Shown piece by piece: positions 13,672 to 50,286 of a DNA stretch of 64,000 nucleotides. Every line of letters begins with the position of its first letter. Within the stretch, counting starts at the first letter, position 1. This DNA is from Lolium rigidum (lineage: Eukaryota; Streptophyta; Magnoliopsida; Poales; Poaceae). The translations under genes were made by a program, and so were the position numbers. Where the stretch lies: positions 151,821,962 to 151,885,961 of the forward strand of contig NC_061512.1 of the NCBI RefSeq assembly GCF_022539505.1, in the 5' to 3' direction. The notes beneath the pieces are model-generated. The model did not search any database and was not told the origin of the DNA. It saw nothing but the letters and a program-made list of their open reading frames with translations.

Positions 13672-13687
13672 CAATACAAAATGTCAT
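13672..13687. repeat. Retroposon copy 3 TSD, left member
   Basis: CAATACAAAATGTCAT adjoins the A-tail of the minus-strand retroposon. Its partner is the exact reverse complement at 45157-45172, in the next contig but one. See the findings on contig orientation. Confidence 0.85.
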
Positions 13688-20901: not shown

Positions 20902-20911
20902 GGAATTTGCT

Positions 20912-27430: not shown

Positions 27431-27530
27431 NNNNNNNNNNNNNNNNNNNNNNNNNNNNNNNNNNNNNNNNNNNNNNNNNNNNNNNNNNNNNNNNNNNNNN
27501 NNNNNNNNNNNNNNNNNNNNNNNNNNNNNN
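27431..27530. other. Assembly gap (100 N)
   Basis: A run of 100 N, the conventional length for a gap of unknown size. The left contig ends inside the gag of element E. The right contig starts within one base of an LTR start. Confidence 0.99.
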
Positions 27531-29133
27531 CGATACGTCTCCGACGTATCGATAATTTCTTATGTTCCATGCCACATTATTGATGATATCTACATGTTTT
27601 ATGCACACTTTATGTCATATTCGTGCATTTTACGGAACTAACCTATTAACAAGATGCCGAAGAGCCGATTCTGTCGTTTTACTGCTGTTTTTGGTTTCAG
27701 AAATCCTAGTAACGAAATATTCTCGGAATTGGACGAAATCAACGCCCAGGGTCCTATTTTGCCACGAAGCTTCCAGAAGACCGAAGGAGAGTCGAAGTGG
27801 GGCCACGAGGTGGCGACACACCAGGGCGGCGCGGCCCAGGCCCTGGCCGCACCGGCCTGTGGTGTGGGCCCCTCGTGCCGCCTCTTTACATGCCCTTCCG
27901 CCTACTTAAAGCCTCCATCGCGAAACCCCCAGTACCGAGAGCCACGATACGGAAAACCTTACTGAGACGCCGCCGCCGCCAATCCCATCTCGGGGGATTC
28001 TGGAGATCTCCTCCGGCACCTCGCCGGAGAGGGGATTCATCTCCCGGAGGACTCTTCACCGCCATGGTCGCCTCCGGAGTGATGAGTGAGTAGTTCACCC
28101 CTGGACTATGGGTCCATAGCAGTAGCTAGATGGTTGTCTTCTCCTCATTGTGCTTCATTGTTGGATCTTGTGAGCTGCCTAACATGATCAAGATCATCTA
28201 TCCGTAATACTATATGTTGTGTTTGTCGGGATCCGATGGATAGAGAATACTATGTTATGTTAATTATCAAGTTATTACCTATGTGTTGTTTATGATCTTG
28301 CATGCTCTCCGTTATTAGTAGAGGCTCCGGCCAAGTTTTTGCTCTTAACTCCAAGAGGGAGTATTTATGCTCGATAGTGGGTTCATGCCTCCATTAAATC
28401 GCGGGACGGTGACGAGAAAGTTCTAAGGTTGTGGATGTGCTTGTTGCCACTAGGGATAAAACATTGATGCTATGTCTAAGGATGTAGTTATTGATTACAT
28501 TACGCACCATACTTAATGCAATTTTCCGTTGTTTTGCAACTTAATGCCGGAAGGGGTTCGGATGATAACCTGAAGGTGGACTTTTTAGGCATAGATGCAT
28601 GCTGGATGTCGGTCTATGTACTTTGTCGTAATGCCCAATTAAATCTCACTATATTTATCATGACATGTATGTGCATTGTTATGCCCTCTCTATTTGTCAA
28701 TTGCCCGACTGTAATTCGTTCACCCAACATGCTTTTATCTTATGGGAGAGACACCTCTAGTGAACTGTGGACCTCGGTCCATTCTTTTATACTGAAATAC
28801 AAATCTGCTGCAATACTTGTTCTTTACTGTTTTCTTGCAAACAATCATCTTCCACACAATACGGTTAATCCTTTGTTACAGCAAACCGGTGAGATTGACA
28901 ACCTCACTGTTTCGTTGGGGCAAAGTACTTTGGTTGTGTTATGCAGGTTCCACGTTGGCGCCGAAATCTCTGGTGTTGCGCCGCACTACATCCCGCCGCC
29001 ATCAACCTTCAACGTGCTTCTTGACTCCTACTGGTTCGATTAACCCTTGGTTTCTTACTGAGGGAAACTTGCCGCTGTACGCATCACACCTTCCTCTTGG
29101 GGTTCCCAACGGACGTGTCAGCTACACGCATCA
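27531..29133 (+). mobile_element. 5' LTR of Athila-like Gypsy A
   Basis: A 1,603-bp LTR begins at the contig edge (CGATACGTCTCC, first base substituted for T) and ends TACACGCATCA. It pairs with the 1,600-bp 3' LTR at 34081-35680. The two differ at several places, for example near 27665-27685 against 34210-34230, so the element is not brand new. It is the same family as A'. Confidence 0.85.
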
Positions 29134-29143
29134 AGCAAATTTC

Positions 29144-29161
29144 TGGCACCGTTGCCGGGGA
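29144..29161 (+). promoter_or_regulatory. Primer binding site of A (tRNA-Asp type)
   Basis: TGGCACCGTTGCCGGGGA lies 10 bases after the 5' LTR. It has one mismatch to the exact tRNA-Asp complement seen in A'. Confidence 0.75.
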
Positions 29162-29377
29162 GATCAAGACACGCTGCAAGGGGAGTCTCCACTTCCCAAT
29201 CTCTTTACTTTGTTTTTGTCTTGCTTGACTACTTTGTTTGCTGCATTATATCAAAACACAAAAAAATTAGTTGCTAGCTTTACTTTATTTACTATCTTGT
29301 TTGCTATATCAAAAATACAAAAAAAATTAGTTACTTGCATTTATTTTATCTAGTTTGCTTTATTTACTACTGCTAAA

Positions 29378-31490
29378 ATGGCCACCCCTGAAAACACTAA
29401 GTTGTGTGACTTCACAACCACAAATAATAATGATTTCCTATGCACACCTATTGCTCCACCTGCTATAACAGCGGAATTCTTTGAAATTAAACCTGCTTTA
29501 CTGAATCTTGTTATGCGAGAGCAATTTTCAGGTGTTAGTTACGATGATGCTTGCTGCCCATCTTAATAATTTTGTTGAACTATGTGAAATGCAAAAGTAT
29601 AAGGATGTAGATGGTGACATTATAAAATTAAAATTGTTTCCTTTCTCATTAAGAGCAAGAGCTAAAGATTGGTTGCTATCTCTGCCTAAGAATAGTATTG
29701 ATTCATGGACTAAATGCAAGGATGCTTTTATTGGTAGATATTATCCCCCTGCTAAAATTATATCTTTGAGGAGTAGTATAATGAATTTTAAACAATTGGA
29801 TAGTGAGCATGTTGCACAAGCTTGGGAAAGAATGAAATCTTTGGTTAAAAATTGCCCAACCCATGGACTGACTACTTGGATGATCATCCAAACCTTCTAT
29901 GCAGGACTAAATTTTTCTTCGCGGAATTTATTGGATTCAGCTGCTGGAGGTACCTTTATGTCCATCACTCTTGGTGAAGCAACAAAGCTCCTTGATAATA
30001 TGATGGTTAATTACTCTGAATGGCACACGGAAAGAGCTCCACAAGGTAAGAAGGTAAATTACGTTGAAGAATCCTCTTCCTTGAATGATAAGATTGATGC
30101 TATTATGTCTATGCTTGTGAATGATAGGACTAATGTTGATCCTAATAATGTTCCGTTAGCTTCATTGGTTGCCCAAGAAGAACATGTTGATGTAAACTTC
30201 ATTAAAAATAATAATTTCAACAACAATGCTTATCGGAACAATTCTAGTAATAACTATAGGCCATATCCTTATAATAATGGTAACGGTTATGCTAATTCTT
30301 ATGGGAATTATTACAATAATAATAGGAACACACCCCCTGGACTTGAAGCTATGCTTAAAGAATTTATTAGTACACAAACTGCCTTTAACAAATCTGTTGA
30401 GGAAAAGCTCAATAAAATTGATATTCTCGCTTCTAAGGTTGATAGTCTTGCCTCTGATGTTGATCTTTTGAAATCGAAAGTTATGCCTAATAAGGATATT
30501 GAAAATAAAATGTTACTACAGCAAATGCCATCCAAGTTAGAATTAATGAGAATATAAGATTAATGGCTGAACTGCGTGCTAGGTGGGATAGAGAAGAAAA
30601 TGAAAAACTAGCTAAAGAGAAAAATGTAGCTAAAGTTTGGACTATTACCACCACTAGCAATGCTAATGATTCACATGTTGCTGCACCTCCTACTATTAAT
30701 GGTAAAATAATTGGTGTTGGCAATGCTTCTACTCCTAGTGCAAAGCGCGCAAAATTACCCAAGCTGCTAAAGCTGCTGAAACTGCTGTGATAAAACTGCT
30801 GAAATTTTTTCCAACCTTGGGGATGATAATCCCATTGCTTTAGATTGTAATGATTTAGATTTTGATGATTGCCACATCTCTGAAGTTATAAAGTTCTTAC
30901 AAAAACTTGCTAAGAGTCCCAATGCTGGCGCTGTAAATTTGGCTTTCACAAAACATATTACAAATGCTCTCATAAAAGCTAGAGAAGAGAAACTAAAACT
31001 TGAAACTTCTATTCCCAGAAAGCTAGAGGATGGTTGGGAGCCCATCATTAAAATGAGGGTCAATGATTTTGATTGTAATGCTTTATGTGATCTTGGTGCA
31101 AGTATTTCTGTTATGCCTAAGAAAGTCTATGATATGCTTGACTTGCCACCATTGAAAAATTGTTATTTGGATGTTAATCTCGCTGATAATGCTAAAAAGA
31201 AACCTTTGGGGAAATTTGATAATGTTCATATTATGTTTAACAATAACCTTCTCCCCGTTGATTTTGTTGTCTTGGATATTGAATGCAATGCATCTTGCCC
31301 CATTATATTGGGAAGACCTTTTCTTCGAACTGTTGGTGCTACTATTGATATGAAGGAAGGTAATATTAAATATCAATTTCCTCTCAAGAAAGGTATGGAA
31401 CACTTCCCTAGAAAGAGAATGAAGTTACCTTATGATTCTATTATTAGAACAAATTATGATGTTGATGCTTCATCTCTCGATAATACTTGA
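29378..31490 (+). pseudogene. Element A gag-protease region, frameshifted
   Basis: The region begins MATPENTKLCDFTTTNNND and runs through three frames. A frameshift near 29560 leads into a retrotransposon gag core (KLKLFPFSLRARAKDWLLSL, FAWERMKSL-type region, an Asn/Tyr-rich linker at about 30200-30330, then a coiled-coil-like stretch). A second shift near 30540 leads to the MAELRARWDREENEKLAK segment. A third near 30790 leads to an aspartic protease domain with CDLGASISVMPKKVYDML (catalytic DLGAS at 31089-31103) and the flap-side IILGRPFLRT motif. The Athila-type DLGAS active site is normal for this clade. No RT, RNase H or integrase follows, so A is a non-autonomous element. The frameshifts make it inactive. 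Confidence 0.85.
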
Positions 31491-34080
31491 TATACACTTT
31501 ACTGCGCCTAGCTGAAAGGCGTTAAAGAAAAGCGCTTATGGGAGACAACCCATGTTTTTACTACAGTATTTTTGTTTTATATTTGAGTCTTGGAAGTTGT
31601 TTACTACTGTAGCAACCTCTTCTTATCTTAGTTTTATTTTTTGTTGTGCCAAGTAAAGTCTTTGATAGTAAAGTAAATACTAGATTTGGATTACTACGCA
31701 GAAACAGATTTCTTTGCTGTAACGAATCTGGGTCTAATTCTCTGTAGGTAACTCAGAAAATTAAGCCAATTTACGTGAGTGATCCTCAGATATGTACGCA
31801 ACTTTCATTCAATTTGGGAATTTTCATTTGAGCAAGTCTGGTGCCTCAATAAAATCCATCTTTACGGACTGTTCTGTTTTGACAGATTCTGCCTTTTATT
31901 TCGCATTGCCTCTTTTGCTATGTTGGATGAATTTCTTTGATCCATTAATGTCCAGTAGCTTTATGCAATGTCCAGAAGTGTTAAGAATGATTGTGTCACC
32001 TCTGAACATGTTAATTTTTATTGTCCACTAACCCTCTAATGAGTTGTTTCGAGTTTGGTGTGGAGGAAGTTTTCAAGGATCAAGAGAGGATTATGATACA
32101 ATATGATCAAGGAGAGTGAAAGCTCTAAGCTTGGGGATGCCCCGGTGGTTCACCCCTGCATATTCTAAGAAGACTCAAGTGTCTAAGCTTGGGGATGCCC
32201 AAGGCATCCCCTTCTTCATCGACAACATTATCAGGTTCCTCCCCTGAAACTATATTTTTATTCCGTCACATCTTATGTGCTTTGCTTGGAGCGTCGGTTT
32301 GTTTTTGTTTTTTGTTTTGTTTGAATAAAATGGATCCTAGCATTCACTGTATGGGAGAGAGACACGCTCCGCTGTTGCATATGGACAAGTATGTCCTTAG
32401 GCTTTACTCATAGTATTCATGGCGAAGTTTCTTCTTCGTTAAATTGTTATATGGTTGGAATTAGAAAATGCTACATGTAGTAATTCTAAAATGTCTTGGA
32501 TAATTTGATACTTGGCAATTGTTGTGCTCATGTTTAAGCTCTTGCATCATATACTTTGCACCCATTAATGAAGAAACACTTAGAGCTTGCTAATTTGGTT
32601 TGCATATTTGGTTTCTCTAGAGTCTAGATAACATCTAGTATTGAGTTTTGAACAACAAGGAAGACGGTGTAGAGTCTTATAATGTTTACAATATGTCTTT
32701 TATGTGAGTTTTGCTGCACCGTTCATCCTTGTGTTTGTTTCAAATAACCTTGCTAGCCTAAACCTTGTATCGAGAGGGAATACTTCTCATGCATCCAAAA
32801 TCCTTGAGCCAACCACTATGCCATTTGTGTCCACCATACCTACCTACTACATGGTATTTCTCCGCCATTCCAAAGTAAATTTCTTGAGTGCTACCTTTAA
32901 AATTCCATCATTCGCCTTTGCAATATATAGCTCATGGGACAAATAGCTTAAAAACAATTGTGGTATTGAATATGTACTTATGCACTTTATCTCTTATTAA
33001 GTTGCTTGTTGTGCGATAACCATGTTTACGGGGACGCCATCAACTATTCTTTGTTGAATATCATGTGAGTTGCTATGCATGTCCGTCTTGTCACGAAGTA
33101 AGAGAGATCTACCACTTTAATGGTTGGAGCATGCATATTGTTAGAGAAGAACATTGGGCCACTAACTAAAGCCATGATTCATGGTGGAAGTTTCAGTTTT
33201 GGACATATATCCTCAATCTCATATGAGAATAATAATTGTTGCCACATGCTTATGCATTTAAGAGGAGTCCATTATCTGTTGTCCATGTTGTCCGGGTATG
33301 GATGTCTAAGTTGAGAATAATCAAAAGCGAGAAATCCAAAATGCGAGCTTTCTCCTTAGACCTTTGTACAGGCGGCATGGAGGTACCCCATTGTGACACT
33401 TGGTTAAAACATGTGTATTGCGATGATCCGGTAGTCCAAACTAATTAGGACAAGGTGCGGGCACTATTAGTATACTATGCATGAGACTTGCAACTTGTAA
33501 GATATAATTTACATAACTCATATGCTTTATTACTACCGTTGACAAAATTGTTTCATGTTTTCAAAATAAAAGCTCTAGCACAAATATAGCAATCGATGCT
33601 TTCCTCTTTGAAGGACCTTTCTTTTTACTTTTATGTTGAGTCAGTTCACCTATTTCTCCCCACCTCAAGAAGCAAACACTTGTGTGAACTGTGCATTGAT
33701 TCCTACATACTTGCATATTGCACTTGTTATATTACTCTATGTTGACAATTATCCATGAGATACACATGTTATAAGTTGAAAGCAACCACTGAAACTTAAT
33801 CTTCCTTTGTGTTGCTTCAATACCTTTACTTTGATTTATTGCTTTATGAGTTAACTCTTATGCAAGACTTATTGATGCTAGTCTTGAAGTGCTATTCATG
33901 AAAAGTCTTTGCTTTATGATTCACTTGTTTACTCATGTCATTACCATTGTTTTGATCGCTGCATTCATTACATATGTTTACAAATAGTATGATCAAGGTT
34001 ATGATGGCATGTCACTTCAGAAATTATCTTTGTTATCGTTTTACTCGCTCGGGACGAGCAGAAACTAAGCTTGGGGATGC
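31491..34080 (+). mobile_element. Element A long 3' untranslated region
   Basis: About 2.6 kb of non-coding AT-rich sequence is collinear with the A' 3' UTR. It starts just after the DNT-stop of the protease frame with TGCGCCTAGCTGAAAGGCGT. It ends with the polypurine tract CTTGGGGATGC (34070-34080) directly before the 3' LTR. The tetranucleotide-rich phrase AAGCTTGGGGATGCCC recurs near 32127 and 32188. Confidence 0.8.
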
Positions 34081-35680
34081 TGATACGTCTCCGACGTATC
34101 GATAATTTCTTATGTTCCATGCCACATTATTGATGATATCTACATATTTTATGCACACTTTATGTCATATTCGTGCATTTTCTGGAACTAACCTATTAAC
34201 AAGATGCCGAAGAGCCAGATGCTGTTTTCTGCTGTTTTTGGTTTCAGAAATCCTAGTAACGAAATATTCTCGGAATTGGACGAAATCAACGCCCAGGGTC
34301 CTATTTTGCCACGAAGCTTCCAGAAGACCGAAGGAGAGTCGAAGTGGGGCCACGAGGTGGCGACACACCAGGGCGGCGCGGCCCGAGGCCCCGGCCGCGC
34401 CGGCCTGTGGTGTGGGCCCCTCGTGCCGCCTCTTTACCTGCCCTTCCGCCTACTTAAAGCCTCCGTCGCGAAACCCCCGGTGCCGAGAGCCACGATACGG
34501 AAAACCTTGCGAGACGCCGCCGCCGCCAATCCCATCTCGGGGGATTCCGGAGATCTCCTCCGGCACCCTGCCGGAGAGGGGATTCATCTCCCGGAGGACT
34601 CTTCACCGCCATGGTCGCCTCCGGAGTGATGAGTGAGTAGTTCACCCCTGGACTATGGGTCCATAGCAGTAGCTAGATGGTTTTCTTCTCCTCATTGTGC
34701 TTCATTGTTGGATCTTGTGAGCTGCCTAACATGATCAAGATCATCTATCCGTAATACTATATGTTGTGTTTGTCGGGATCCGATGGATAGAGAATACTAT
34801 GTTATGTTAATTATCAAGTTATTACCTATGTGTTGTTTATGATCTTGCATGCTCTCCGTTATTAGTAGAGGCTCTGGCCAAGTTTTTGCTCTTAACTCCA
34901 AGAGGGAGTATTTATGCTCGATAGTGGGTTCATGCCTCCATTAAATCTAGGACAGTGACAGAAAGTTCTAAGGTTGTGGATGTGCTATTGCCACTAGGGA
35001 TAAAACATTGATGCTATGTCTAAGGATGTAGTTATTGATTACATTACGCACCATACTTAATGCAATTGTCTGTTGTTTTGCAACTTAATACTGGAAGGGG
35101 TTCGGATGATAACTTGAAGGTGGACTTTTTAGGCATAGATGCATGCTTGGATGGCGGTCTATGTACTTTGTCGTAATGCCCAATTAAATCTCACTATATT
35201 TATCATGACATGTATGTGCATTGTTATGCCCTCTCTATTTGTCAATTGCCCGATCGTAATTCGTTCACCCAACATGCTTTTATCTTATGGGAGAGACACC
35301 TCTAGTGAACTGTGGACCCCGGTCCATTCTTTTATACTTGAAATACAAATCTGCTGCAATACTTGTTCTTTACTTGTTTTCTTGCAAACAATCATCTTCC
35401 ACACAATACGGTTAATCCTTTGTTACAGCAAGCCGGTGAGATTGACAACCTCCCTGTTTCGTTGGGGCAAAGTACTTTGGTTGTGTTGTGCAGGTTCCAC
35501 GTTGGCGCCGGAATCTCTGGTGTTGCGCCGCACTACATCCCGCCGCCATCAACCTTCAACGTGCTTCTTGACTCCTACTGGTTCGATTAAACCTTGGTTT
35601 CTTACTGAGGGAAACTTGCCGCTGTACGCATCACACCTTCCTCTTGGGGTTCCCAATGGACGTGTCAGCTACACGCATCA
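34081..35680 (+). mobile_element. 3' LTR of Athila-like Gypsy A
   Basis: A 1,600-bp LTR runs from TGATACGTCTCCGACG to TACACGCATCA. The next five bases, ACCGC (35681-35685), are the expected TSD; the partner would precede 27531 and is lost in the gap. The following sequence is the minus-strand gag of Copia element C, so A is inserted in C. Confidence 0.9.
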
Positions 35681-36425
35681 ACCGCCAAGGCAAGGTTGGA
35701 ACCTTTTGTCATCCCAAGAGCACGATTGCGAGAATCATGAGAGGTTTCCTCAAGCACCTTGAGAGCTTGCATCTCGTGCACGACTTGTTGAGAGGTGAGA
35801 GAGGAATAGCATTCCCTTCCCACAAGAGTCTTGACATCAATGGGTACAAATGGCATCATGCATTCAATGTACTTCTCCTTGATCCAAGTGTCATTGATGT
35901 GGGTGGCACCAATAAGCCGGAAGGCATCGGCAACGGTGAGAAGTCTTCCATACATGACTTCATGATCTTCATCTGGTAGCCTCATGAACCCTTCGGCTTT
36001 ATTCTTAAGAGCATTATACTTGTTCCTCCTTGTGCTCTCACTTCCAATGCAACTAGCGGCCAAACCATCCCAAGCTTCCTTGGCGGTGGTGTAGTTCCGG
36101 ACACGATGCAGTTCCTTTGTCCCCACACTAGTTTGAATCATGTGCAAGGCGGTGTTGTTGGGTTGACTATCAATCGCTTCTCTTCTAGTCAACTTGTCGG
36201 GGTTGTATGGTTTGAAGCCCTCCAAGATGATTCTCCATAGTTCATTGGAGGCACTACAAGCATGAGAGCGGAACTCAAATTGCCAAGTATCGAAATTATC
36301 AATAGAAAACTTAGGTGGGTCGCCCCGAATGTTCAAATGGGGATGGGGAACCGGTATATCGGGAGATAGGAAAGGTGGAGCTACTCGATTGTAGCTTTCA
36401 CCTCCACTAGTTCCCCTAGGAGATG
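35681..36425 (-). pseudogene. Copia element C gag (UBN2-type), main part
   Basis: The minus-strand frame carries a Copia gag of the UBN2/DUF4219 type: SIDNFDTWQFEFRSHACSAS, LWRIILEGFKPYNP, AKEAWDGLAASCIGSESTRR and DEDHEVMYGRLLTVADAFRL. The frame is open to the insertion site of element A at 35680. On its 5' side it is interrupted by the solo LTR at 36426, and the frame resumes in phase at 38105. The zinc knuckle and pol are not visible. The coding sequence itself looks intact, so the insertions, not point decay, inactivated it. Confidence 0.85.
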
Positions 36426-38099
36426 TGATGTCTACGGGTGCTTCTATTCTTGTAGACAGTGTTGGGCCTCCAAGAGCAGAGGTTTGTAGAACAGCAGCAA
36501 GTTTCCCTTAAGTGGATCACCCAAGGTTTATCGAACTCAGGGAGGAAGAGGTCAAAGATATCCCTCTCATGCAACCCTGCAACCACAAAGCAAGAAGTCT
36601 CTTGTGTCCCCAACACACCTAATAGGTGCACTAGTTCGGCGAAGAGATAGTGAAATACAGGTGGTATGAATAAGTATGAGCGAGTAGTAACGCAGCGGTA
36701 GTAACGCGACAGTAGTAACGCAATAAAACGAGTAAACAAGCAGCGATAGCAGATATTTAGGAACAAGGCCTAGGGATTAGACTTTCACTAGTGGACACTC
36801 TCAACTTTGATCACATAACAGAATAGATAAATGCATACTCTACACTCTATTGTTGGATGATGAACACATTGCGTAGGATTACACGAACCCTCAATGCCGG
36901 AGTTAACAAGCTCCACAATTCAATGTTCATATTTAAATAACCTTAGAGTGCATGAAAGATCAACACGACTAAACCAAGTACTAACATAGCATGCACACTC
37001 GTCACCTTCACACCATGTAGGAGGAATAGATCACATCAATACCATCATAGCAATAGTTAACTTCATAATCTACAAGAGATCACAATCATAGCCTACACCA
37101 AGTACTAACACGGATGCACACACTCGTCACCATTACACCGTGCGGGAGGAATAAAACTACTTTAATAACATCACTAGAGTAGCACATAGATAAATTGTGA
37201 TACAAAACACATTGCAATCATAAAGAGATATAAATAAGCACTTCACTACGCCATTCATAACGGTGAATAAGTATTCTGTGAAATATAGCCTAAGAGACCC
37301 ACACGGTGCACACACTCGTCACCTTTACACACGTGGGACAAGGAGTCTCCGGAGATCACATAAGTAAAACCCACTTGACTAGCATAATGACATCTAGATT
37401 ACAAGCATCATCATATGAATCTCAATCATGTAAGGCAGCTCATGAGATTATTGTATTGAAGTACATAGGAGAGAGATGAACCACATAGCTACCGGTACAG
37501 CCCCGAGCCTCGATGGAGAACTACTCCCTCCTCATGGGAGACAGCAGCGTTGATGGAGATGGCGGTGGTGTCGATGGAGGAGCCTTCGGGGGCACTTCCC
37601 CGTCCCGGCGGCGTGCCGGAACAGAGACTCCTGTCCCCCAGATCTTGGCTTCGCGATGGCGGCGGCTCTGGAAGGTTTCTCGTACCGTGGCTTTTTTGTA
37701 TCGAGGTTTTAGGTCGAGGGGCTTTATATAGGCGAAGAGGCGGCGTCAGAAGGTCAACGGGGCGACGACACCATAGGGGGGCGCGGGCCACCCCCAGGCC
37801 GCGCCGGCCTATGGTCTGGTGGGCCTGTGCCCCCTCTATGGCGGTTCTCGTGTGTTCTGGATGCTTCCGGGCAAAATAGGAACCTGGGCGTTGATTTCGT
37901 CCAATTCCGAGAATATTTCGTTACTAGGATTTCTGAAACCAAAAACAGCAGAAAACAACAACTGGCACTTCGGCATCTTGTTAATAGGTTAGTTCCAGAA
38001 AATGCACGAATATGACATAAAATGTGCATATAACATGTAGATATCATCAAAAATGTGGCATGGAACATAAGAAATTATCGATACGTCGGAGACGTATCA
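36426..38099 (-). mobile_element. Solo LTR of an Athila-like Gypsy family
   Basis: The 1,674-bp sequence starts TGATACGTCTCCGACG at 38099 and ends CGTAGACATCA at 36426 on the minus strand. It is flanked by a perfect 5-bp TSD, AGATG (36421-36425 and 38100-38104). The first ~200 bp of the LTR resemble elements A and A', but the remainder differs, so it is a related family. The interior was lost by LTR-LTR recombination. It splits the Copia gag. Confidence 0.92.
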
Positions 38100-38104
38100 A
38101 GATG

Positions 38105-38336
38105 CAATGGGAGATTTGATAGTGTTTAAGTTATCACCTTCCACGGGTTTGGTAGATGAGGGAAAGTCCGAAGCATCTCCCTCATCTAACGCACCCGTGT
38201 CTTTTACCTCTACACTAGGAGCCTTGGGAAGGGCCGGAGCCAAAAGCTCGGCAATCATCTTTTTCATGCTTTCCATTTGGGCTTCCATGGAGGACTTCAA
38301 CGAATTGAAGTCTTCCGTGGGATCCTCGTTCGGCAT
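38105..38336 (-). pseudogene. Copia element C gag, N-terminal part
   Basis: The frame starts at an ATG at 38334-38336 (MPNEDPTEDFNSLKSSMEAQ) and runs 77 codons to the solo LTR insertion. It is acidic with a coiled-coil start and a Pro/Ser/Asp-rich linker. Removing the solo LTR and one TSD copy leaves the frame in phase with the gag at 36425, which supports a single ancestral gag of about 330 visible residues. Confidence 0.8.
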
Positions 38337-38366
38337 ACTCTTAGGCGGTTAAGCCCGAAATAAGAG

Positions 38367-38383
38367 CCGAGGCTCTGATACCA
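38367..38383 (-). promoter_or_regulatory. Primer binding site of Copia C (initiator tRNA-Met)
   Basis: On the minus strand TGGTATCAGAGCCTCGG begins two bases after the LTR end. TGGTATCAGAGC is the classical complement of plant initiator tRNA-Met used by Copia elements. Confidence 0.9.
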
Positions 38384-38385
38384 AT

Positions 38386-39605
38386 TGAAAGGATCGTATG
38401 CCGCACCTAGAGGGGGGGTGAATAGGTGCTAACCAATTTTTAGTTCTTTTTCAATATAGGCTTGACACCAAAGGTAAATTCTCTAGATATGCAACTAAGT
38501 GAATTTACCTATATGACAAGGCTACCAACTAAGCAAGATTTAGCTAGGCAATATAAGATATAGAATAGGATAGCGGTAACCGAGTGGAGCACGCGATGAC
38601 ACGGAGATGATTCCCGTAGTTCCCTTCCTTTGCAAGAAGGTACGTCTACGTTTGGAGGAGTGTGGTTGCTACGAAAGCCAAACCAACAGCCACGAAGGCT
38701 TCACTCAAATCTCCGGTGAGCAACGCCACGAAGGCCTAGCCCACTTCCACTAAGGGATTTCCTCGAGGCGGAAACCGGGCCTTTACAAGGTTCTTGGGGC
38801 ACACATCCACAACCGAATTGGAGGCTCCCAAATCTGTTACAACACAACAATCAACAACAATACATCAACACAAATCAACTAGGTATCCAAAGAGAAACAC
38901 TAGCAAGGGGGCCCTCAACAAAATGAGGGGAAATGCAAATTGCTTCGGTGAAGATGTAGATCGGGGTCTTCTCCTTCGATTCTCCAAAGCACAAGGGATT
39001 TGGGTGGTTGCGGGAGGAGATCCGATGGATTTGATGTTCTTGGTGGCTCAACAATGGTGTATGTCCTTTTAGGAGGGGGAATGAGCAACCCTAGCACAAT
39101 GGAGAAGAAGACTTTAAGTAGTGGCTGCTGAAACAGCCGTTGCAGCCGTTGGAGAGGGGTGGCCGGTAGTACCGGCCAGTTTGGGCCGGTACTACCGCTC
39201 CTAGGCGACGCGCGCGACCATCAGGAGGAGGCCACGTGGCCAGAGGGGCTCGGTCCGGGAGGGGGGGCTGGAGCCTCCGGCCGGGGCTCCAACCCCCCTG
39301 GCTAGTATACTGAGCCGCCCCGCCGCCACCGGTACCTTGGGCGGTACCATGGCCGGAGCCTCCGGCCGTGGCCGGGCCGGCCGGTACCGCCCAAGCCTCC
39401 GGCTTCTCTCTTCTTTTCTTCTTTTCTTTTTCTCTTCTTCTTCTCATTTCTTTCTTTCTTCTTTTCTTTCTGATATCTTGCATACTCTTCACGCTTTAAG
39501 CATCTAGAGAATGTAATAACCTACAAATCTTATAAACCGAAATGTTCATATATTATCATTGTCATCAACACCAAAACTACATATAAAATGAGATATGATC
39601 TTTCA
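38386..39605 (-). mobile_element. 5' LTR of Copia element C
   Basis: A 1,220-bp LTR on the minus strand runs from TGAAAGATCATATC (39605) to ACGATCCTTTCA (38386). It is nearly identical to the LTR at 48753-49993 apart from a short GC-rich indel (GGCCGGTACC-type repeats). The outer flank 39606-39610 is GTGAC, the reverse complement of the GTCAC flanking the other LTR. SIRE/Maximus lineage is likely from the PBS, PPT and extra 3' ORF. Confidence 0.9.
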
Positions 39606-39847
39606 GTGACCCCACATAAAGCCATGTAAAATGTTGCTAGCTGTCCCCGCATGGCCCGACAAAGCTGAAAAAGTCCGCAGGTTCCAGCAGCCCGGAGCAT
39701 CTTATTCAATTTCAAAACTAAATCCAATAACCTCTGCTAGATCGACAAGTCAAGGAGCCAAACTAATACTTTAAGCCATTACAAGACTATAAGATACACT
39801 TATCATCTCACATAGATAAGTTTGCCAGATTAATTACATTTGAATTT

Positions 39848-39907
39848 CCATGTTAGTTTTAAATTGCTACCAGATTGGTGCTGACTAATTGCTAGGTTAG
39901 TTTTACC
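39848..39907 (+). repeat. Degenerate ~44-bp tandem repeat, left part
   Basis: Units of the form GGTTAgTTTTACC..GCTgCCAGATT.GcaCcgaCTgATTG start here and resume at 41275 after the retroposon. The last 13 bases (39895-39907) are the retroposon TSD. Confidence 0.6.
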
Positions 39908-41274
39908 CCGGAACGCTTCGCCCTCCTCGCGTCACTCCCTCCTGGCGACCGAGGAGGTGAAACCCTAGCCCCATGCCACCGCCGCTCCCCTCACCTATCC
40001 CCTCCTCCTCGTCACCCCCAGAGACGCCGCTGAGCTTGTCTCACGTCGCCGGTGAAGGGGGCGGCGGGGATCTGAGCTCTCGCCCCCCGCGCGGTGTGTA
40101 GGTGGAGGATCTCCGCGCCGGGATCGTCTTGACCGAGGCGGCGGCGCTGCGGACTGCTCTTGCTTCGACGGCTAGCGGCCTGAGGTAAGAGAGGTCTATG
40201 CGGGTTTCTTCCTCGGTGGGGTCTCCGAAAACCAGGGCGGTGGCCCTGGGCTGGTGGGCGGCGTCGACTCTTCGACAGGGTGGTGCGCTCGCGTGGTTGC
40301 TGGCCGCCATGCTTGGCTGCGGGGGCAGCGGCTCGGTGGCAGGTGCTGGTCTGGCGTGCTGATCTCTTCGGCGCCGCGCTCGCCGGATCTGAAGGCCATA
40401 CTTTTGCTGCCAGATCTGTGGATGCGCCGGTCGCCGAAGCTCGGCTGGGTGCGTCACGGTGGGTTGTGGGGCTGGGGCCTCCGGGAGAAATCCCTGGCCA
40501 GAGGCCATGACAGTGGTGACGCCTGCGGGCATCACTCCCTTGCTGGAGTCGCCGTCGAGGTGGTTCCCCTTCCTCCTACCAATCCTTGTGCCCGGGTGAA
40601 AACCCAATTCCCCTCGGAATGGGCGACATCTACGCCTCTGGCGTGGTGCCCCTCTTGAAGGCGCCGTTTTGGGTAAAGGGGGCAGTGTGATGTTGGTCCA
40701 TCTTGGAGGTAGTGGCGTGTTTCATATGCAGCGTTCTTCTTCGGTTCTCCGGCAAGGGCGCCTTTCCTTTCAGCGGCTGTTCCTTCGTGGCACCTTCAGC
40801 TTGCGTCAGGCCGGGCGAGTTCTCATGTCCGTCGGCGGAGTTGGTCTCGTGGTGTTCTCGGCTGTTCTTGGTGGCCAAACCTGGCGTCTGCTCTTTGTTC
40901 TCAGTGTCCCTGTCTTTGTTTCGAACTCTAGGGTGAGCGACTCCGGCCGACGATATGGCGCCCTTCGATCCAGGGCGAGGGAGCAGGGGCTTCCTTCTGC
41001 TTCAGAGACGGACCACGGTCTTTGGCCATTGGATTTACACGCAAGACGGTTTCTCCTTGACGATGAACCCCTTCCGAGTGTCAATTGCTGCCGCTTCAAG
41101 TGTAGGGATTTGCCTTGGTGGCTGAGGACTCCTACGAACAAGCTATGTGTCGTGTTTTCGGTGTGTGCTTGTGTGTGTTGGTGTCTTGTAAGCTGTTCTA
41201 CCAGCATCCTGTCATTTTGTGCCGTTCGTGACTTTATTAATTTAAAGCTAGGCTTAGGTCTTATGTTTAAAAAA
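39908..41274 (+). mobile_element. GC-rich retroposon, complete copy
   Basis: The element is 1,367 bp with a GC-rich 5' part (CCCTAGCCCCATGCCACCGC) and a 3' terminus GACTTTATTAATTTAAAGC.. ending in an A-run. A perfect 13-bp TSD, GGTTAGTTTTACC, flanks it at 39895-39907 and 41275-41287. Long frames inside lie on both strands, overlap and reflect GC content; I recognise no domain. It was mobilised by LINE machinery. Confidence 0.8.
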
Positions 41275-41480
41275 GGTTAGTTTTACCTAGCTGCCAGAAT
41301 TATTACTCATAGATTAATTTTACCAATCTACCAGATTTGCACCGACTGATTGGCAGGTTAAATTTACCTAGCTGCCAAATTAGCACCGGCTGATTGGCAG
41401 GTTAAAGTTTACCTAGCTTCTAGTACTAACTATTGCCAGGTTAGTCTTACCTAACTACCAGATTAACTTGTATTGGCTGC
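41275..41480 (+). repeat. Degenerate ~44-bp tandem repeat, right part
   Basis: About four to five units continue the array seen at 39848, for example GGTTAAATTTACCTAGCTGC followed by CAAATTAGCACCGGCTGATT. The retroposon landed inside this array. Confidence 0.65.
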
Positions 41481-42035
41481 TAGAGTTAGCGATCCCAATT
41501 GCATACAAGCCACCATCTCAACCATGGAGATGGAGATGTAGTGGAAAGAGGAAGCTTGCAAGCAACAAATCGATTGTGGACTTATGAGGTGCGGCGGCGG
41601 TCAGGTGTCCTTCAGGCTGCGCCTTGCCTATCCTCGACGACCGTGACCGGCCCAACGAGCGCCACCAGCCACGACCTCACGCTCGCAGACTAGCATCCAT
41701 GACCAGCCTGATGAGCCAATTGGCTGCTCGAATGATTCGAGTTGAATCCCTTTGCGAGGCGCCGACAGTTGGTGCCTCGCAAATCAGCGGTGGCCGGAAC
41801 AAGCACCGGCGGCCGCGATCTCAGAAATCGTCCACGTGCTCGACCAGCACCAGCGGCCTTGACCTCATCGAGTGATGTTGTTCTTGCAGCGGCGCTCCCT
41901 AGCAGACCACGACCGACGACCTCAACATGCCAGCATGGTGCTGCATCTTGCCATGAGAGGGAGGGAACTTGAGACGAGAGAGAAGCTAGTCATGTCATGG
42001 GTGGAGAAAGTGGGAGAAACAAGATGGGCGGATAA
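41481..42035. other. Unrecognised, moderately GC-rich
   Basis: Overlapping short frames occur at 41499-41975 without known motifs. It may be an old transposon remnant. I do not call a gene. Confidence 0.35.
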
Positions 42036-42196
42036 GGGCATGTATAATGGGATGACATCAGCTTTTTCTTCCGTTTGTCATGTTGGATTTTTGCGAAATT
42101 AAATGAGAGAGAAGAAAAAAAGAGAAGGTTGTCTTCCCTTAGCTAAGAGATGATCTCTTATGAGATAAGAGAAGAAAATTTTCCCCATTATACAAT
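42036..42196. mobile_element. Small MITE with TGTATAATGGG ends
   Basis: TGTATAATGGG at 42041-42051 is mirrored by CCCATTATACA at 42184-42194. About 130 bases of AG-rich, non-coding core lie between them, including a near-palindrome around GATCTCTTATGAGATAAGAG. The class is uncertain. Confidence 0.6.
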
Positions 42197-42470
42197 TTTT
42201 ATTTATCTTTCTTTAGCCACATAATTTCCTACTACTAAGTATAAGTAGTTCTCATTTATTGCAAGGGATACCCTAAGGTAAAAGTGGAGATAGAGCGGTT
42301 GACCATGCACTGCATGTAGCGATGAGAAAATATTACGCTCGCTCCCTATAGATACGAAGACACGCAACATAACTATTGTACGAGACACAACTAGGCGTGC
42401 GGCGATTTCCTTAACAGAATTGCAGCAGAGGATGCCAAAAGATAGAAAAACAGCACGAATAGTCATTTGG

Positions 42471-43281
42471 ACGGATATGAATTTGGTACACATGGGCACC
42501 AGTACTCTCGTTTGCTAAATAAATAAAAATATATTTTTGAGTTTTAAATAATTCTGAGAAAAAATCTGCATATAGCCAATAATGTATTCCATAAACGTGT
42601 AAAATCAATTTCAAATAATTTATATTTTAAGCTACACAAAAATAGCAAAACTGCAGATCTAACCAGTTATTTTCAAATCTGCAAAAACATATCATATTTT
42701 GTTATTATTTTATCACAAAGTAAATATAATTTTTGGTTAAAATTTTACATGATTGTGAGATGTATCACAATCTCCTGAATTATTTTCAAGTTTTTGATAA
42801 CTTATAAATATTTCTTTTAATTTTTAAAAAATAACGAGAGCACCGGAGCTTGGGAGCCAAAAACACTTTTCGACGGATAGAGATTTGGTGCACATAAACA
42901 CCAATGATACTGTTGTTTAATTAAAAAAAATCATATTTTTGTGTTTCAAATAATTCTAAAAATAAATTCGTATATAGTGAATGTTGTATTCCACAAACGT
43001 GTAAAATATCAACTTCAAATACTTTATATTCTGATTTACACAAAAATGATAAAAATGTAGATCTGAGTAGCTATTTTTCAAATCTCCTAAATATATCAGA
43101 TTTTGTTATTTTTGTCTAGCATAAAATAAAACGAATTTCAGGTTAAGATTTTACATGATTGTGAGATATATCATTGACAATTTCAAAATTATTTTTAGAT
43201 TTTTAGTAACTTATATAAATATTTTTTAATTTATTTTAAATGGCGAGAGGAGTGGAGCTCGGAAACCAAATACACTTTCCG
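42471..43281 (+). repeat. Direct tandem duplication of a ~405-bp AT-rich unit
   Basis: Unit 1 (42471-42872) and unit 2 (42873-43281) are head-to-tail copies. Both begin ACGGATA.AGATTTGGT.CACAT and end GGAGC..GGGAACCAAA.ACAC. They share ACAAACGTGTAAAAT.AA and TTTTACATGATTGTGAGAT blocks and have diverged by many substitutions. Neither codes for protein. Confidence 0.8.
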
Positions 43282-43944
43282 TTGAAACATAAGGAAACCA
43301 TAGAAAGAGTACCTCGATTGAACGTGAATGTGTATATATAAAAATTAAAATTTCTATGGGATTAGGCTGTAGGATTGCAACCCACAGGAATTTTGGAGGC
43401 CGGTGACATTCCTTTGATCCAAAGGACTTCTTTAGAAAAAGAAAATACTCTATAGATTGGAATCCTCCTAAAAATTATAAAAATCCTTTCCAAAGAGTCC
43501 TGAAATGAGAAGTCCCGCTGAGGTGGTTTGCACAAATAATAATCTTGGTACACCATGGGCTCGTTTTGCTAAAATTACTTCTGGCTAGTTCGAGAACATG
43601 TTTTGGGCGTTCCGAGACCGCTAGGTGGCCTATGCGCTGTACCGCCGAATGTAAAACTCACATGTGCACGCTCTCCGCACTCCGCAGACCACGCGGCGGC
43701 CGCCGGCGCCGCCTCGTTCGTCTCCTCTACAGCCTTCTTCCAACACGTACCCCCTCTACGTGTTGCGTTCTTTACACCGCCTCGCCACACACCTCACAAG
43801 CTCGCTCCGCTTACAACAATCGTTCCACAACACTGGATTCTCCACCGCGCACCACCACCAACAACACCAAGTCTCGCACGCCGGTGACAAGGTAGCTCAC
43901 GAAGGAGGGTAACCGAGAGAAGCTCCGTACGAAGCGCGCGCACC

Positions 43945-44310
43945 ATGGCGAAGAGCGGCACGGAGGAGTGGCGGAGCAACGCCGACACGCACAAGATGAG
44001 CCCGGAGGAGGTGAGGGCGGCGGGGGTGGAGGCGTCCAAGCGCCCGCCCGGCCGCGGCGGCAGCCCTGGGGAGGTCCTGCACCAGCGCGGCGGCCGCCTG
44101 CCGTACGGGCCTGGCACCATGGCGCTGATGGGGTTCGGCATCGTCGGCGTCATAGGCTACATGGTGCTGTACCAGAAGGCGAGGCCCGGCACGCCGGCCA
44201 CCGAGGTCGCCAAGGTGGCCGTCGGGCACGGTGACCCCGCCGTCGGCCGCGACGTCCAGAGGCGCCAGGACGAGGGGGCGCCGTCGCCACCGCCACGCGA
44301 TGGGAAGTAG
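43945..44310 (+). CDS. Small conserved single-pass membrane protein
   Basis: This is a 121-aa intronless plant gene. The N-terminal ~50 residues are hydrophilic and Gly/Pro/Lys-rich (EVRAAGVEASKRPPGRGGSP), with a conserved LHQRGGRLPYGPGTMA motif. A single transmembrane helix lies at about residues 58-77 (MALMGFGIVGVIGYMVLYQK), and the tail is short, soluble, with Ala/Val and then Pro. The LHQR..LPYSP.TM-membrane-helix pattern with a following VAKVA segment recurs in small uncharacterised plant proteins (Arabidopsis At3g27030-like, from memory). The start context CACCATGGCG is a good plant Kozak site. A possible poly(A) signal, AATAAA, lies at about 44335-44340. It is a gene island between transposons, with an organellar or endomembrane location possible but not shown. 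In the corrected contig orientation it would be on the minus strand. Confidence 0.85.
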   Translation: MAKSGTEEWRSNADTHKMSPEEVRAAGVEASKRPPGRGGSPGEVLHQRGGRLPYGPGTMALMGFGIVGVIGYMVLYQKARPGTPATEVAKVAVGHGDPAVGRDVQRRQDEGAPSPPPRDGK

Positions 44311-45156
44311 ATGACTGTACGAGTTAGGATTCCATAAATAAACGGTGGTAGAAGAGTTGAAGGATACGCTGTTTTTCTTCCAAGTTCAGCTCTGGTTACA
44401 CTGCTTTGGTCGCATTTTGTTGTGGACCACGCATGTATCTGAATTTCTATCAGAAATGACTGTTGAAAATAAATTATGTTACTTGCTACTAATGTTCATG
44501 CAAGCATATTCCTGCCTAACCAATTTTACATTAGAATCGCGCTAGGAGAGATGTTTTGGCTTCTGAGTGTATATGTTTTCCTTTACTTAATTTTAAAATG
44601 CATCTTTGATATATTTTGAAATGCAAAAATATTTAAATAAAAATCTCAGTTGTACATCTTCACATGCTCGTACGCATAAAGTTTTCATAAAGAATGAGCT
44701 TGTTGTTTAGGTTATGTAAAACAAAATTAGGTGCAAATATAAAGCTTTTTGTAGGACATGTTTATCTTTTGTATCTTTTACGTCCATTATAAAAAATATT
44801 AGATCTTTACGAAACTACAAGCGTACATAGATTGTTGGTTGTTGAGATGTATATGTGTACATAGATTGTGGATTGTCAAGATACAAACGTACATCGATTG
44901 TTGGTTGTTGAGATGCCTATACAAAATATTTTATTTAATTTTTCTTTACTTAGAAATAAAATAATTGGATGGAGGAAACATATGCACTTGGGATCTGAAT
45001 TGGTTTCCTAATCTCGTTTGTACAGTACATTAACATAATGTACTTTGTCCCCGCAGTTCTCCATTTTTATGATAATGATACATTTGTGACAGTTGCAAGT
45101 AGAACTTTTTTTTAGCAGAGGCGGTTGCAAGCTGTATATGTATAAAAAGGATCGGC
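44311..45156. other. Intergenic with a short minisatellite
   Basis: No gene is seen. Three imperfect copies of a ~32-bp unit (CGTACATAGATTGTTGGTTG then TTGAGATG) lie at about 44822-44920. The remainder is AT-rich 3' flank. Confidence 0.5.
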
Positions 45157-45172
45157 ATGACATTTTGTATTG
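45157..45172. repeat. Retroposon copy 3 TSD, right member (inverted as assembled)
   Basis: ATGACATTTTGTATTG is the exact reverse complement of 13672-13687. It directly precedes the 5' region of the retroposon half at 45173. Confidence 0.85.
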
Positions 45173-45639
45173 CTGATACATTGCTGATAGCCGCCCCCAA
45201 CCCCACCCCTCCCAACCCTAGCCGCCCCCAACCCCAACACTCCTCCCGCCGCCGCCGGCAGCGCCGCCGGGGCAAAGACCTCAGGGCGTGGCGGCGGCGG
45301 GGGCTTTCCCTCTTGACGCGGATGGGACGGCGGCTGGGTCATCCCCTCGACGGCGGCGGCGGTAGACCTCCTCCATCCCGTGTGATGGCGTGGCGGCGGC
45401 GGTCGGAGGAAGAAGGGGCGGCGGTGGCCAGAGTGTTGCGGCCTCCCCTGCCTCCCGTCGGTGGCACACCGGTGGTGGCTGGTGGTGGGACGGTTTGCGC
45501 CATCCCCTCCGCTTCTCGCCGGTGCGGGGTGGTGACCTTGGGTTTCTCCCGCGGTTCGAGGACGCCCGGGGCAGCAACCTCGGGTTCGATGGAGGAGGCG
45601 GCCTTCTTCTTCGTTGGAGGTGGTCGGTCAGGCTGGTAG
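45173..45639 (+). mobile_element. Retroposon copy 3, 5' part (truncated by element D)
   Basis: The 5' part is GC-rich (CCGCCCCCAACCCCACCCC and later CGGCGGCGG runs) of the same kind as the other retroposons. It stops at the LTR of D, with the 5-mer GGTAG (45635-45639) as D's TSD. It has no 3' end of its own; the matching 3' part is at 13688-14595. Long frames here are GC artefacts. Confidence 0.7.
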
Positions 45640-45724
45640 TGACATAGGCATCCTCAATGGACCTGCCGAAGATAGTACCCGGGGTTTACTGAAGGCCCAC
45701 GACTCGAAGAATAAGAAGAATCGA
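45640..45724 (+). mobile_element. Element D 5' LTR, first 85 bp
   Basis: TGACATAGGCATCCTCAATG onward matches the start of the D LTR at 14980-14896 with about five substitutions, then runs into the gap. The left flank GGTAG is the reverse complement of the CTACC beside the other D LTR. Confidence 0.88.
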
Positions 45725-45824
45725 NNNNNNNNNNNNNNNNNNNNNNNNNNNNNNNNNNNNNNNNNNNNNNNNNNNNNNNNNNNNNNNNNNNNNNNNNNNN
45801 NNNNNNNNNNNNNNNNNNNNNNNN
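45725..45824. other. Assembly gap (100 N)
   Basis: A second 100-N spacer. It begins inside the D LTR and ends one base before a BARE-type LTR. Confidence 0.99.
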
Positions 45825-45825: not shown

Positions 45826-47608
45826 TGTTGGAGATATGCCCAAGAGGCAATAATAAAAGTGGTTATTATATATCTTTATGTTTATGATAAATGTTTATAT
45901 ACCATGCTATAATTGTATTAACCGAAACATTGATACATGTGTGATATGTAAACAACAAAGAGTCCCTAGTATGCCTCTTAACTAGCTTGTTGGTTAATGG
46001 ATGATTAGTTTCATAATCATGAACATTGGATGTTATTAATAACAAGGTTATATCATTGTATGAATGATGTAATGGATACACCCATATTAAGCGTAGCATA
46101 AGATCTCGTCATTAAGTTATTTGCTATAAGCTTTCGATACATAGTTACCTAGTCCTTATGACCATGAGATCATGTAAATCACTTATACCGGAAAGGTACT
46201 TTGATTACACCAAACGCCACTGCGTAAATGGGTGGTTATAAAGGTGGGATTAAGTATCCGGAAAGTATGAGTTGAGGCATATGGATCAACGAGTGGGATT
46301 TGTCCATCCCGATGACGGATAGATATACTCTGGGCCCTCTCGGTGGAATGTCGTCTAATGTCTTGCAAGCATATGAATAAGTTCATAAGAGACCACATAC
46401 CACGGTACGAGTAAAGAATACTTGTCAGGAGACGAGGTTGAACAAGGTATAGAGTGATACCGAAGATCAAACCTCGGACAAGTAAAATATCGCGAGACAA
46501 AGGGAATTGGTATTGTATGTGAATGGTTCATTCGATCACTAAAGTCATCGTTGAATATGTGGGAGCCATTATGGATCTCCAGATCCCGCTATTGGTTATT
46601 GGTCGGAGTGAGTACTCAACCATGTCCGCATAGTTCACGAACCGTAGGGTGACACACTTAAAGTTGGATGTTGAAATGGTAGTATTTGAATATGGAATGG
46701 AGTTCGAATATTTGTTCGAAGTCCCGGATGGGATCCCGGACATCACGAGGAGTTCCGGAATGGTCCGGAGAATAAGATTCATATATAGGATGTCATTTTA
46801 TGTGAATTAAAATGTCGCGGAAGGTTCTATGGAAGGTTCTAGAAGGTTCTAGAAAAGTCCGGAAGAAACCACCAAGGAAGGTGGAGTCCACATGGGACTC
46901 CACCTCCATGGCCGGCCAACCCTAGTGGGGGAGGAGTCCCAAGTGGACTCCCCCTTAGGGGGCCGGCCACCCCCCATATGGGAGGTGGAACTCCCACCTT
47001 TGGTGGGAGTCCTAGCTTGGCTAGGTTTCCCCTCCTTTTGGAAGGTTTTGGTCCGGGTCTTATTCGGAGACTTGGAGACCAACTCTTGGGGATCCACCTA
47101 TATAATGAGGGGCGAAGGGAGGGGGCCGGCCACCCCAAGACCACAACCTCGGCCGCCCCTTGAGTGGCCGGCCACCCCCTCCCAAACCCTAGCCGCCCCC
47201 TCTCCTCCATAGCTCCCGCGTGCTTTAGCGAAGCTCCGCCGGAGTTCTCCACCGCCACCGACACCACGCCGTCGTGCTCGTCGGATTCAAGAGGAGCTAC
47301 TACTTCCGCTGCCCGCCGGAACGGGAGGTGGACGTCGTCTTCATCAACAACCGAACGTGTGACCGAGTACGGAGGTGCTGCCCGTTCGTGGCGCCGGAAC
47401 CGATCGTGATCAAGATCTTCTACGCGCTTTTGCAAGCGGCAAGTGAACGTCTACCGCAGCAACAAGAGCCTCATCTTGTAGGCTTTGGAATCTCTTCAAG
47501 GGTGAGACTCGATACCCCCTCGTTGCTACCGTCTTCTAGATTGCATCTTGGCTTGGATTGCGTGTTCGCGGTAGGAAAATTTTTGTTTTCTATGCAACGT
47601 TATCCTAC
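45826..47608 (+). mobile_element. Solo LTR of a BARE1/Angela/WIS-type Copia element
   Basis: This complete 1,783-bp LTR runs from TGTTGGAGATATGCCC to GTTATCCTACA, the classic ends and length of the BARE1/Angela/WIS family. A TATA-like CTATATAATGAGG is near 47097. No primer site or interior follows; instead the sequence passes straight into a Copia C coding frame, so it is a solo LTR. The right 5-mer is AAGAG; only the last base (G, 45825) of the left TSD is visible beside the gap, and it agrees. Confidence 0.9.
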
Positions 47609-48202
47609 AAAGAGGTCTCCTGCCTTTGGTCCCTTCATCATGAAGCTTATTTCTGAGGTGTGGCGTCAGAAATTTGAGGGTGCCATTCTGGAACCATTTT
47701 CATCACTCACTGCTCATAAACGCAAGAACCTTCTTATCAAAGATCATGAGCTCCTAGCTTCTACCTCAGCCCCTGCAGCTCCTTCCGCCCTCAGCGAGCT
47801 CCTTCAGCAGGTCCTGCAGATCCTTCCACTGCTCCTGCTCGCCGGCTTGATGGCTTCATTGCTCATATGGCTCTTGGGGCACCTCCGGCTCACTCCGCAT
47901 ATGATCCCCTGCTCGAGCCCTCTTGGTAAACCAAGCTCAAGATCAAGGTAAAGAAGACCTTCTGCCTCCAGCTCGATATTCAGGAGCGTATGTATGACGC
48001 CTATGTGGCAGAGAAGAAAGCTCGACGCCGTCAGAAGAGCATCATGGCAAAGCTTGGTGTGGAAGTGTCTCCTCCAGGATCTGAAGAGAATATCCTTCCG
48101 AAGCCTCAGTGGATTTCTGCTCATAGCCAGTGGTCTGATGGCGAGGATGGACCCTCCTATGATGTCGACTCCGATATTGCCGGGGACTTCCTTGATGGCT
48201 AG
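47609..48202 (+). pseudogene. Copia element C 3' extra ORF (env-like position), fragment
   Basis: The frame opens directly after the solo LTR (SPAFGPFIMKLISEVWRQKF), continues through a Ser/Ala/Pro-rich stretch, and after a frameshift near 47850-47930 ends with IQERMYDAYVAEKKARRRQK and DIAGDFLDG before a stop at 48200-48202. It lies between the missing pol and the 3' LTR, the place of the env-like or extra ORF in SIRE-lineage Copia elements. I cannot assign a fold. It has a charged, probably coiled-coil middle. It is truncated by the LTR and frameshifted, hence inactive. Confidence 0.55.
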
Positions 48203-49993: not shown

Positions 49994-50286
49994 GTCACAT
50001 CACGTCACGGGTGGTAGGCAGCGGCCGCACGGTGCAAAGTGAGGGAAAAGCATGGAGTTCTCATGTTTTCGCGTGTATGCCTATGAGCCACCGCACGGGA
50101 TCAATATTATGTGGCGCCACCGTCTATTTAAGTCTTTCCGTTAAATTCCTATGTTTTCTAATTATTCTATTTTGTAATCCTATGATCCAATAAAACCCTT
50201 AGTGGCTCAAAGCACGCGGCATTATCTGCTCTTGACAAAAGAAAAACCTTACTTGTCAAGTAGGGTTGCCGCTATTTTCTCTATTC
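49994..50286. other. Short intergenic stretch between Copia C and a Harbinger element
   Basis: No gene is seen. The first five bases are the TSD of Copia C. Confidence 0.5.

What the first reader, a model, noticed from the sequence alone, without database searches (positions are those of the whole stretch)
27431..45824. The contig between the two N-gaps is almost certainly assembled in reverse orientation
Three unrelated insertions are cut by the gaps, and each has one end outside and one end inside 27531-45724. As given, their two ends point the wrong way and their TSDs are reverse complements. Reverse-complementing 27531-45724 restores all three at once: a 16-bp LINE-type TSD, a 5-bp Gypsy TSD and a 5-bp Copia TSD. 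It also makes the two Copia C LTRs and the two element D LTRs direct repeats, rejoins retroposon copy 3, and puts elements A and A' in the same orientation. The breakpoints coincide with the gaps, so a scaffolding error is far more likely than a real inversion. Gene order and strand of the 43945-44310 gene change accordingly.
Basis: partly seen in the sequence, partly recalled or inferred. Interest (0 to 1): 0.9.

Follow-up and report, generated by a model that had tools for sequence, protein, structure and literature searches.

The report
Misoriented contig between two gaps
An 18-kilobase piece of a grass genome assembly most likely sits backwards between two gaps, because transposon insertions cut by the gaps match up only when the piece is flipped; this is an ordinary assembly error rather than a biological inversion.

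Summary
Confirmed, and ordinary. Two gaps of exactly 100 N enclose contig I (27531-45724, 18,194 bp). Three insertions have one end in I and one outside. A LINE-like retroposon has target-site duplication (TSD) CAATACAAAATGTCAT at 13672-13687 and, reverse-complemented, at 45157-45172. LTR element D, nested in it, has CTACC at 14591-14595 and 45635-45639. Copia-like element C has GTCAC at 39606-39610 and 49994-49998. As given, all three TSD pairs are reverse complements and both LTR pairs are inverted; flipping I repairs all. Of 24 signed arrangements, only +L -I +R satisfies 3 of 3; the given one satisfies 0. Retroposon and D test one junction, Copia C the other.

A real inversion ending in both gaps is unlikely: between 2-kb visible flanks the only inverted match is 13 bp. 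Short-contig misorientation is a documented Hi-C problem (passages); how this assembly was scaffolded is unknown. The gaps probably hide more than 100 bp. No reads or second assembly could be examined; the own-genome search was unanswered six times. The source is probably a Festuca/Lolium grass.

The parts
27431..27530 (.). Gap 1, 100 N (probably a placeholder; true size unknown)
45725..45824 (.). Gap 2, 100 N (probably a placeholder; true size unknown)
27531..45724 (-). Contig I, 18,194 bp, placed in reverse orientation; strand given is the inferred true one
   Evidence: only +L -I +R satisfies 3 of 3 insertions
13672..13687 (+). Retroposon TSD, outside copy CAATACAAAATGTCAT, followed by poly-T (the poly-A tail seen from the other strand)
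13688..14595 (-). LINE-like retroposon, 3' part, up to and including the D target site
45157..45172 (-). Retroposon TSD, inside copy (reverse complement as given)
45173..45639 (+). LINE-like retroposon, 5' part; + as given, opposite to its 3' part
14591..14595 (+). Element D TSD, outside copy CTACC
14596..14980 (-). Element D LTR, 385 bp, TGACA...TGTCA; the bases next to it inward look like a polypurine tract on the - strand, so probably the 3' LTR (inference)
45640..45724 (+). Element D, outer end of the other LTR, cut by gap 2 as given: 84 of 385 bp plus one non-matching terminal base; + as given, opposite to its partner
45635..45639 (-). Element D TSD, inside copy (GGTAG as given = CTACC on -)
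39606..39610 (-). Copia C TSD, inside copy (GTGAC as given = GTCAC on -)
38386..39605 (-). Copia C 5' LTR, with PBS-like TGGTATCAGAGCC just inside it (PBS identity recalled)
48753..49993 (+). Copia C 3' LTR, preceded by purine-rich GGGGGAGAT
49994..49998 (+). Copia C TSD, outside copy GTCAC
35681..38336 (-). Copia C gag-coding stretch, interrupted by a probable solo LTR and cut at 35681 by A'
36426..38099 (-). 1,674-bp probable solo LTR inside Copia C gag with TSD CATCT on both sides (within-contig control)
27531..35680 (+).
15855..21354 (-). Element A, relative of A', opposite to it as given
45826..47609 (+). 1,784-bp probable solo LTR (BARE/Angela-like; name recalled), followed by AAGAG; only one base (G, 45825) of a left TSD is visible
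43945..44310 (+). Gene-like ORF (121 codons and stop), + as given; would be - after the flip

Best explanation
Contig I (27531-45724) was put in the right place but in the wrong orientation when the scaffold was built, with 100 N written at each end. Shown: three transposon insertions are broken at the contig ends, and their TSDs and LTRs agree only if I is reversed. Inferred: the cause is scaffolding, because an 18-kb contig gives little orientation signal, and the gaps hide more than 100 bp each.
For: Retroposon TSD 16 of 16 bp, D TSD 5 of 5, Copia C TSD 5 of 5, all in the flipped sense only. Anchored 16-mer: 0 of 300 shuffles; 5-mer frequencies 0.00067 and 0.00072. 1 of 24 signed arrangements satisfies all three; the given one satisfies none. 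PBS-like and purine-rich tracts give the Copia C LTRs the 5' and 3' roles that the flip requires. Both ends of I demand the flip. The only inverted match between the four visible 2-kb flanks is 13 bp. Literature, passages only: orientation errors rise as contigs get shorter; a ryegrass assembly was re-scaffolded because order and orientation errors were suspected.
Against: No reads, contact map or second assembly seen; the own-genome search was unanswered six times. Copia C LTRs differ less (16 of 1,210 sites) than those of A', which is inserted in Copia C (37 of 1,592): the reverse of the expected order (Fisher p = 0.068). A' gives no support: its second TSD is not beside 27531 in either orientation, so it must lie in a gap. 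The LTR at 45826 contributes one base. Without anchoring, 6 of 100 shuffles also share a 16-mer. Of 5 within-contig elements tried as TSD controls, 3 showed no TSD, so TSDs are not always readable here.
Confidence: 0.96

Rival explanations
1. A real inversion of about 18 kb or somewhat more, younger than the three insertions, with both breakpoints inside the gaps.
For: It would break the same TSD and LTR pairs in the same way. Small inversions occur in grass genomes (recalled).
Against: Both breakpoints must fall in gaps by chance. The only inverted match between the visible 2-kb flanks is 13 bp; the hidden gap sequence cannot be tested. Recombination between the inverted pair A/A' would put breakpoints inside A and A', not at the gaps (inference).
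Confidence: 0.03
2. Contig I belongs elsewhere and was placed here by mistake.
For: Much of the sequence near the gaps is repetitive.
Against: Both ends of I have exact TSD partners in the flanking pieces on the right sides, one of them 16 bp long.
Confidence: 0.005
3. Chance: the insertion ends are unrelated fragments and the TSD agreements are accidental.
For: 6 of 100 shuffles share at least one unanchored 16-mer; two of the TSDs have only 5 bp.
Against: Each agreement sits at an element boundary marked independently by LTR homology with TG...CA ends or by a poly-T tail. Multiplying the two 5-mer frequencies already gives about 5 in 10 million, before the 16-mer.
Confidence: 0.005

Closest known systems
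Orientation errors of short contigs in Hi-C scaffolding (PMC7672694 and PMC6719893; passages read)
   Same: A short contig, right place, wrong strand.
   Different: Here the error is read from sequence alone, through gap-crossing transposons. The scaffolding method of this assembly is not known.
Kyuss v1.0 ryegrass assembly, revised in PMC10940895 (passages read)
   Same: A related grass in which order and orientation errors were suspected and the assembly was re-scaffolded with Hi-C.
   Different: There the suspected cause was scaffolding against barley, and the differences named in the passages seen are large-scale.
LTR Assembly Index (PMC6265445; passages read)
   Same: Uses intact LTR elements with TSDs as a reference-free measure of assembly quality.
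   Different: It measures continuity; the word 'orientation' does not occur in the main text held.

Membership tests
Contig misorientation in a scaffold | Breakpoints coincide with gaps of placeholder size | tested here: met
   Both gaps exactly 100 N
Contig misorientation in a scaffold | Features cut at both ends become whole on reversal | tested here: met
   3 of 3 insertions, two junctions
Contig misorientation in a scaffold | Reads or contact map join the reversed ends | not testable with these tools
   No reads; own-genome search unanswered
Real inversion by recombination between inverted repeats | Inverted repeats at the two breakpoints | tested here: not met
   Only a 13-bp inverted match between visible 2-kb flanks; hidden gap sequence could not be tested
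LTR retrotransposon, copia (Copia C) | Paired LTRs with TG...CA, 5-bp TSD, PBS-like and purine-rich tracts | tested here: met
   met only after the flip
LTR retrotransposon, copia (Copia C) | Copia-type gag | tested here: inconclusive
   Pfam copia-type gag 21.8 bits, below its cutoff of 27; named relatives in Lolium multiflorum, some called CCHC-type domain-containing
LTR retrotransposon, copia (Copia C) | Copia-order pol domains | tested here: inconclusive
   No Pfam match in the two ORFs tested in or overlapping 47610-48752; the rest may lie in a gap
LTR retrotransposon (D) | Paired LTRs with TG...CA and 5-bp TSD | tested here: met
   met only after the flip
   No Pfam match in the two ORFs tested near 27430
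LINE-type retroposon | Poly-A tail and long TSD | tested here: met
   Poly-T at 13687-13695 on the + strand, 16-bp TSD
LINE-type retroposon | Reverse transcriptase or other LINE protein | not tested
   Probably a short non-autonomous or truncated copy (inference)

The most novel reading that the evidence does not exclude
A genuine, recent inversion of roughly 18 kb whose two breakpoints both failed to assemble. It broke three older transposon insertions, two of them nested one in the other, and might be polymorphic among fescues and ryegrasses.
Probability: 0.03. Interest if true: 0.3.

Novelty: not a real feature. Interest (0 to 1): 0.15.

Why it matters
As biology it is ordinary: the apparent inversion is most likely an assembly artefact. 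It matters to users of this assembly, because strand and order of everything in 27531-45724 (including the 43945-44310 ORF) are probably wrong, and a survey of structural variants would report a false inversion. It also shows that transposon insertions crossing gaps can orient contigs without reads, a check that could be automated on repeat-rich plant assemblies.

Tried and rejected
The search of the window's own genome was answered 'busy' six times; that question stays open. Rfam gave 0 matches. A sensitive BLAST of the two retroposon pieces against the window found, besides themselves, an internal repeat of the first piece, a 110-column match (69%) of its tail end at 5787-5893, and a 68-column match of the second piece at 47176-47242; no second copy covers both halves, so their contiguity could not be shown from a relative. 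A' was tried as a fourth witness and dropped: its second TSD (ACCGC / GCGGT) stands at neither candidate junction. The LTR at 45826 gives one matching base only.

Within-contig TSD controls, 5 elements examined: two show direct TSDs (retroposon 5937-7171, GTGGACCGTATATT; solo LTR 36426-38099, CATCT); three show none (retroposon ending near 3890; inverted-repeat pairs 58031-59265 and 59492-60691). Inverted TSDs were not searched for in these controls. Recombination between A and A' as cause of a real inversion was rejected because its breakpoints would lie inside A and A'. Pfam gave no name for the 43945-44310 ORF; the protein search used the ORF on the other strand, so its 2 hits say little about the gene.

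Papers: PMC7672694, PMC6719893, PMC10940895, PMC12625059, PMC12764793 and PMC6265445 were seen as search listings and passages only. Two searches touching on TSDs and contig orientation (15 of 24 papers listed, 1 of 1) showed, by titles and starts of abstracts, nothing that I recognised as use of TSDs to orient contigs; that does not show that none exists.

Full report
What was claimed.

Layout. The window holds two runs of exactly 100 N, 27431-27530 and 45725-45824. I call the pieces L (1-27430), I (27531-45724, 18,194 bp) and R (45825-64000). The best protein relative of the S-domain lectin ORF at 56184-57605 (-) is from Festuca glaucescens (97% identity over 91% of the query); the first relative from another named genus is from Lolium rigidum (84%). 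The source is therefore probably a Festuca/Lolium grass (inference).

Junction L/I, witness 1: a LINE-like retroposon. CAATACAAAATGTCAT stands at 13672-13687 in front of a poly-T run, and its exact reverse complement at 45157-45172. Of 18 inverted L/I exact matches of 13 bp or more outside the masked repeat pairs it is the only one above 14 bp. Anchored at the element boundary, 0 of 300 dinucleotide shuffles of I gave 16 bp; the best was 13 bp, in 2 of 300. Without the anchor 6 of 100 shuffles shared at least one 16-mer with L, so the evidence lies in position as well as length.

Junction L/I, witness 2: LTR element D, nested in the retroposon. Its left LTR is 14596-14980, preceded by CTACC. 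The outer 84 bp of the other LTR lie at 45640-45723, with 80 of 84 bases identical, and CTACC on the minus strand at 45635-45639. As given, both halves of D run rightward from their TSDs, which one insertion cannot do.

Junction I/R, witness 3: Copia C. Its LTRs, 38386-39605 in I and 48753-49993 in R, are inverted as given; the TSD is GTGAC at 39606-39610 and GTCAC at 49994-49998. A PBS-like sequence lies just inside the I copy and a purine-rich tract just before the R copy, so on reversal I carries the 5' LTR and R the 3' LTR, both on the + strand. What these tracts are is recalled knowledge of copia elements.

Joint test. I enumerated 24 signed arrangements of L, I and R, mirror images counted once. 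Only +L -I +R makes all three insertions whole; five make two whole (the retroposon and D), five make one whole (Copia C), and the remaining 13, the given one among them, make none whole. The retroposon and D test the same junction, so the evidence is three insertion events at two junctions. CTACC and GTCAC occur at 0.00067 and 0.00072 of positions in the window.

Weaker or neutral witnesses. A (15855-21354) and A' (27531-35680) become parallel on reversal, which has a chance of one half. The second TSD of A' is not visible in either orientation. The LTR at 45826-47609 is followed by AAGAG and preceded by a single G before the gap.

How much is hidden. A' cuts the Copia C gag frame at 35681. 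Three Lolium multiflorum relatives (P0124, P0125, P0126) go on for 131, 161 and 130 residues past that point. At E of 1 or less none of these tails matches L, I or R, except the last 39 residues of P0125, which match A-type LTR sequence. In one search the whole-protein alignments ran on to 35605, that is about 25 residues into the A' LTR; I take this as chance extension. The junction I/R therefore probably hides more than 300 bp, unless Copia C is internally deleted. At the other junction D's LTR lacks about 300 of 385 bp. Both gaps are thus probably larger than 100 bp.

Result against the reading. A' lies inside Copia C and should be younger, yet its LTRs differ at 37 of 1,592 sites and those of Copia C at 16 of 1,210 (Fisher p = 0.068). 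Rate differences or gene conversion might explain it; neither was tested. Of five within-contig elements tried as TSD controls two showed a direct TSD and three none.

Real inversion or assembly error. A real inversion would need both breakpoints to fall in gaps. Between the four visible 2-kb flanks the only inverted match is 13 bp, so recombination between inverted repeats has no visible substrate, and the A/A' pair would give breakpoints elsewhere. PMC6719893 says that inversions are common when input contigs are short, because contacts span the whole contig (passages); PMC7672694 says that shorter contigs are harder to orient (passages). How this assembly was scaffolded is not known; a Hi-C origin is an inference from gap style and contig size.

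Consequence. Everything in 27531-45724 should be read in reverse: the gene-like ORF 43945-44310 is on + as given and would be on -. The S-domain lectin and kinase ORFs in R (53431-57605) are not affected.

Verdict. Observation confirmed, interpretation supported at about 0.96, biological interest low. Direct proof needs reads or a second assembly, which were out of reach here.

Noticed in passing
27531 and 45724: The first and last base of contig I each differ from the LTR copy they adjoin, and the contig starts exactly at an LTR's first base: contig ends seem to fall at or near repeat boundaries.
   Followed up: partly
27531-35680 within Copia C: The inserted A' element has more diverged LTRs (37 of 1,592 sites) than its host Copia C (16 of 1,210), the reverse of the expected order.
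   Followed up: partly
53431-57605: S-domain lectin receptor kinase-like gene on the minus strand (B_lectin, S-locus glycoprotein, PAN and kinase pieces); closest named relative from Festuca glaucescens, 97%.
   Followed up: partly
23016-23780: ORF with a Plant mobile domain (PF10536) between element A and gap 1; possibly transposon-borne.
   Followed up: no
5937-7171: Another retroposon copy bounded by a 14-bp direct TSD (GTGGACCGTATATT); part of it is about 76% identical, inverted, to 3105-3896.
   Followed up: partly
58031-59265 and 59492-60691: Two stretches bounded by inverted repeats (28 bp exact, and about 70 bp at 87%); no clear TSD seen.
   Followed up: partly
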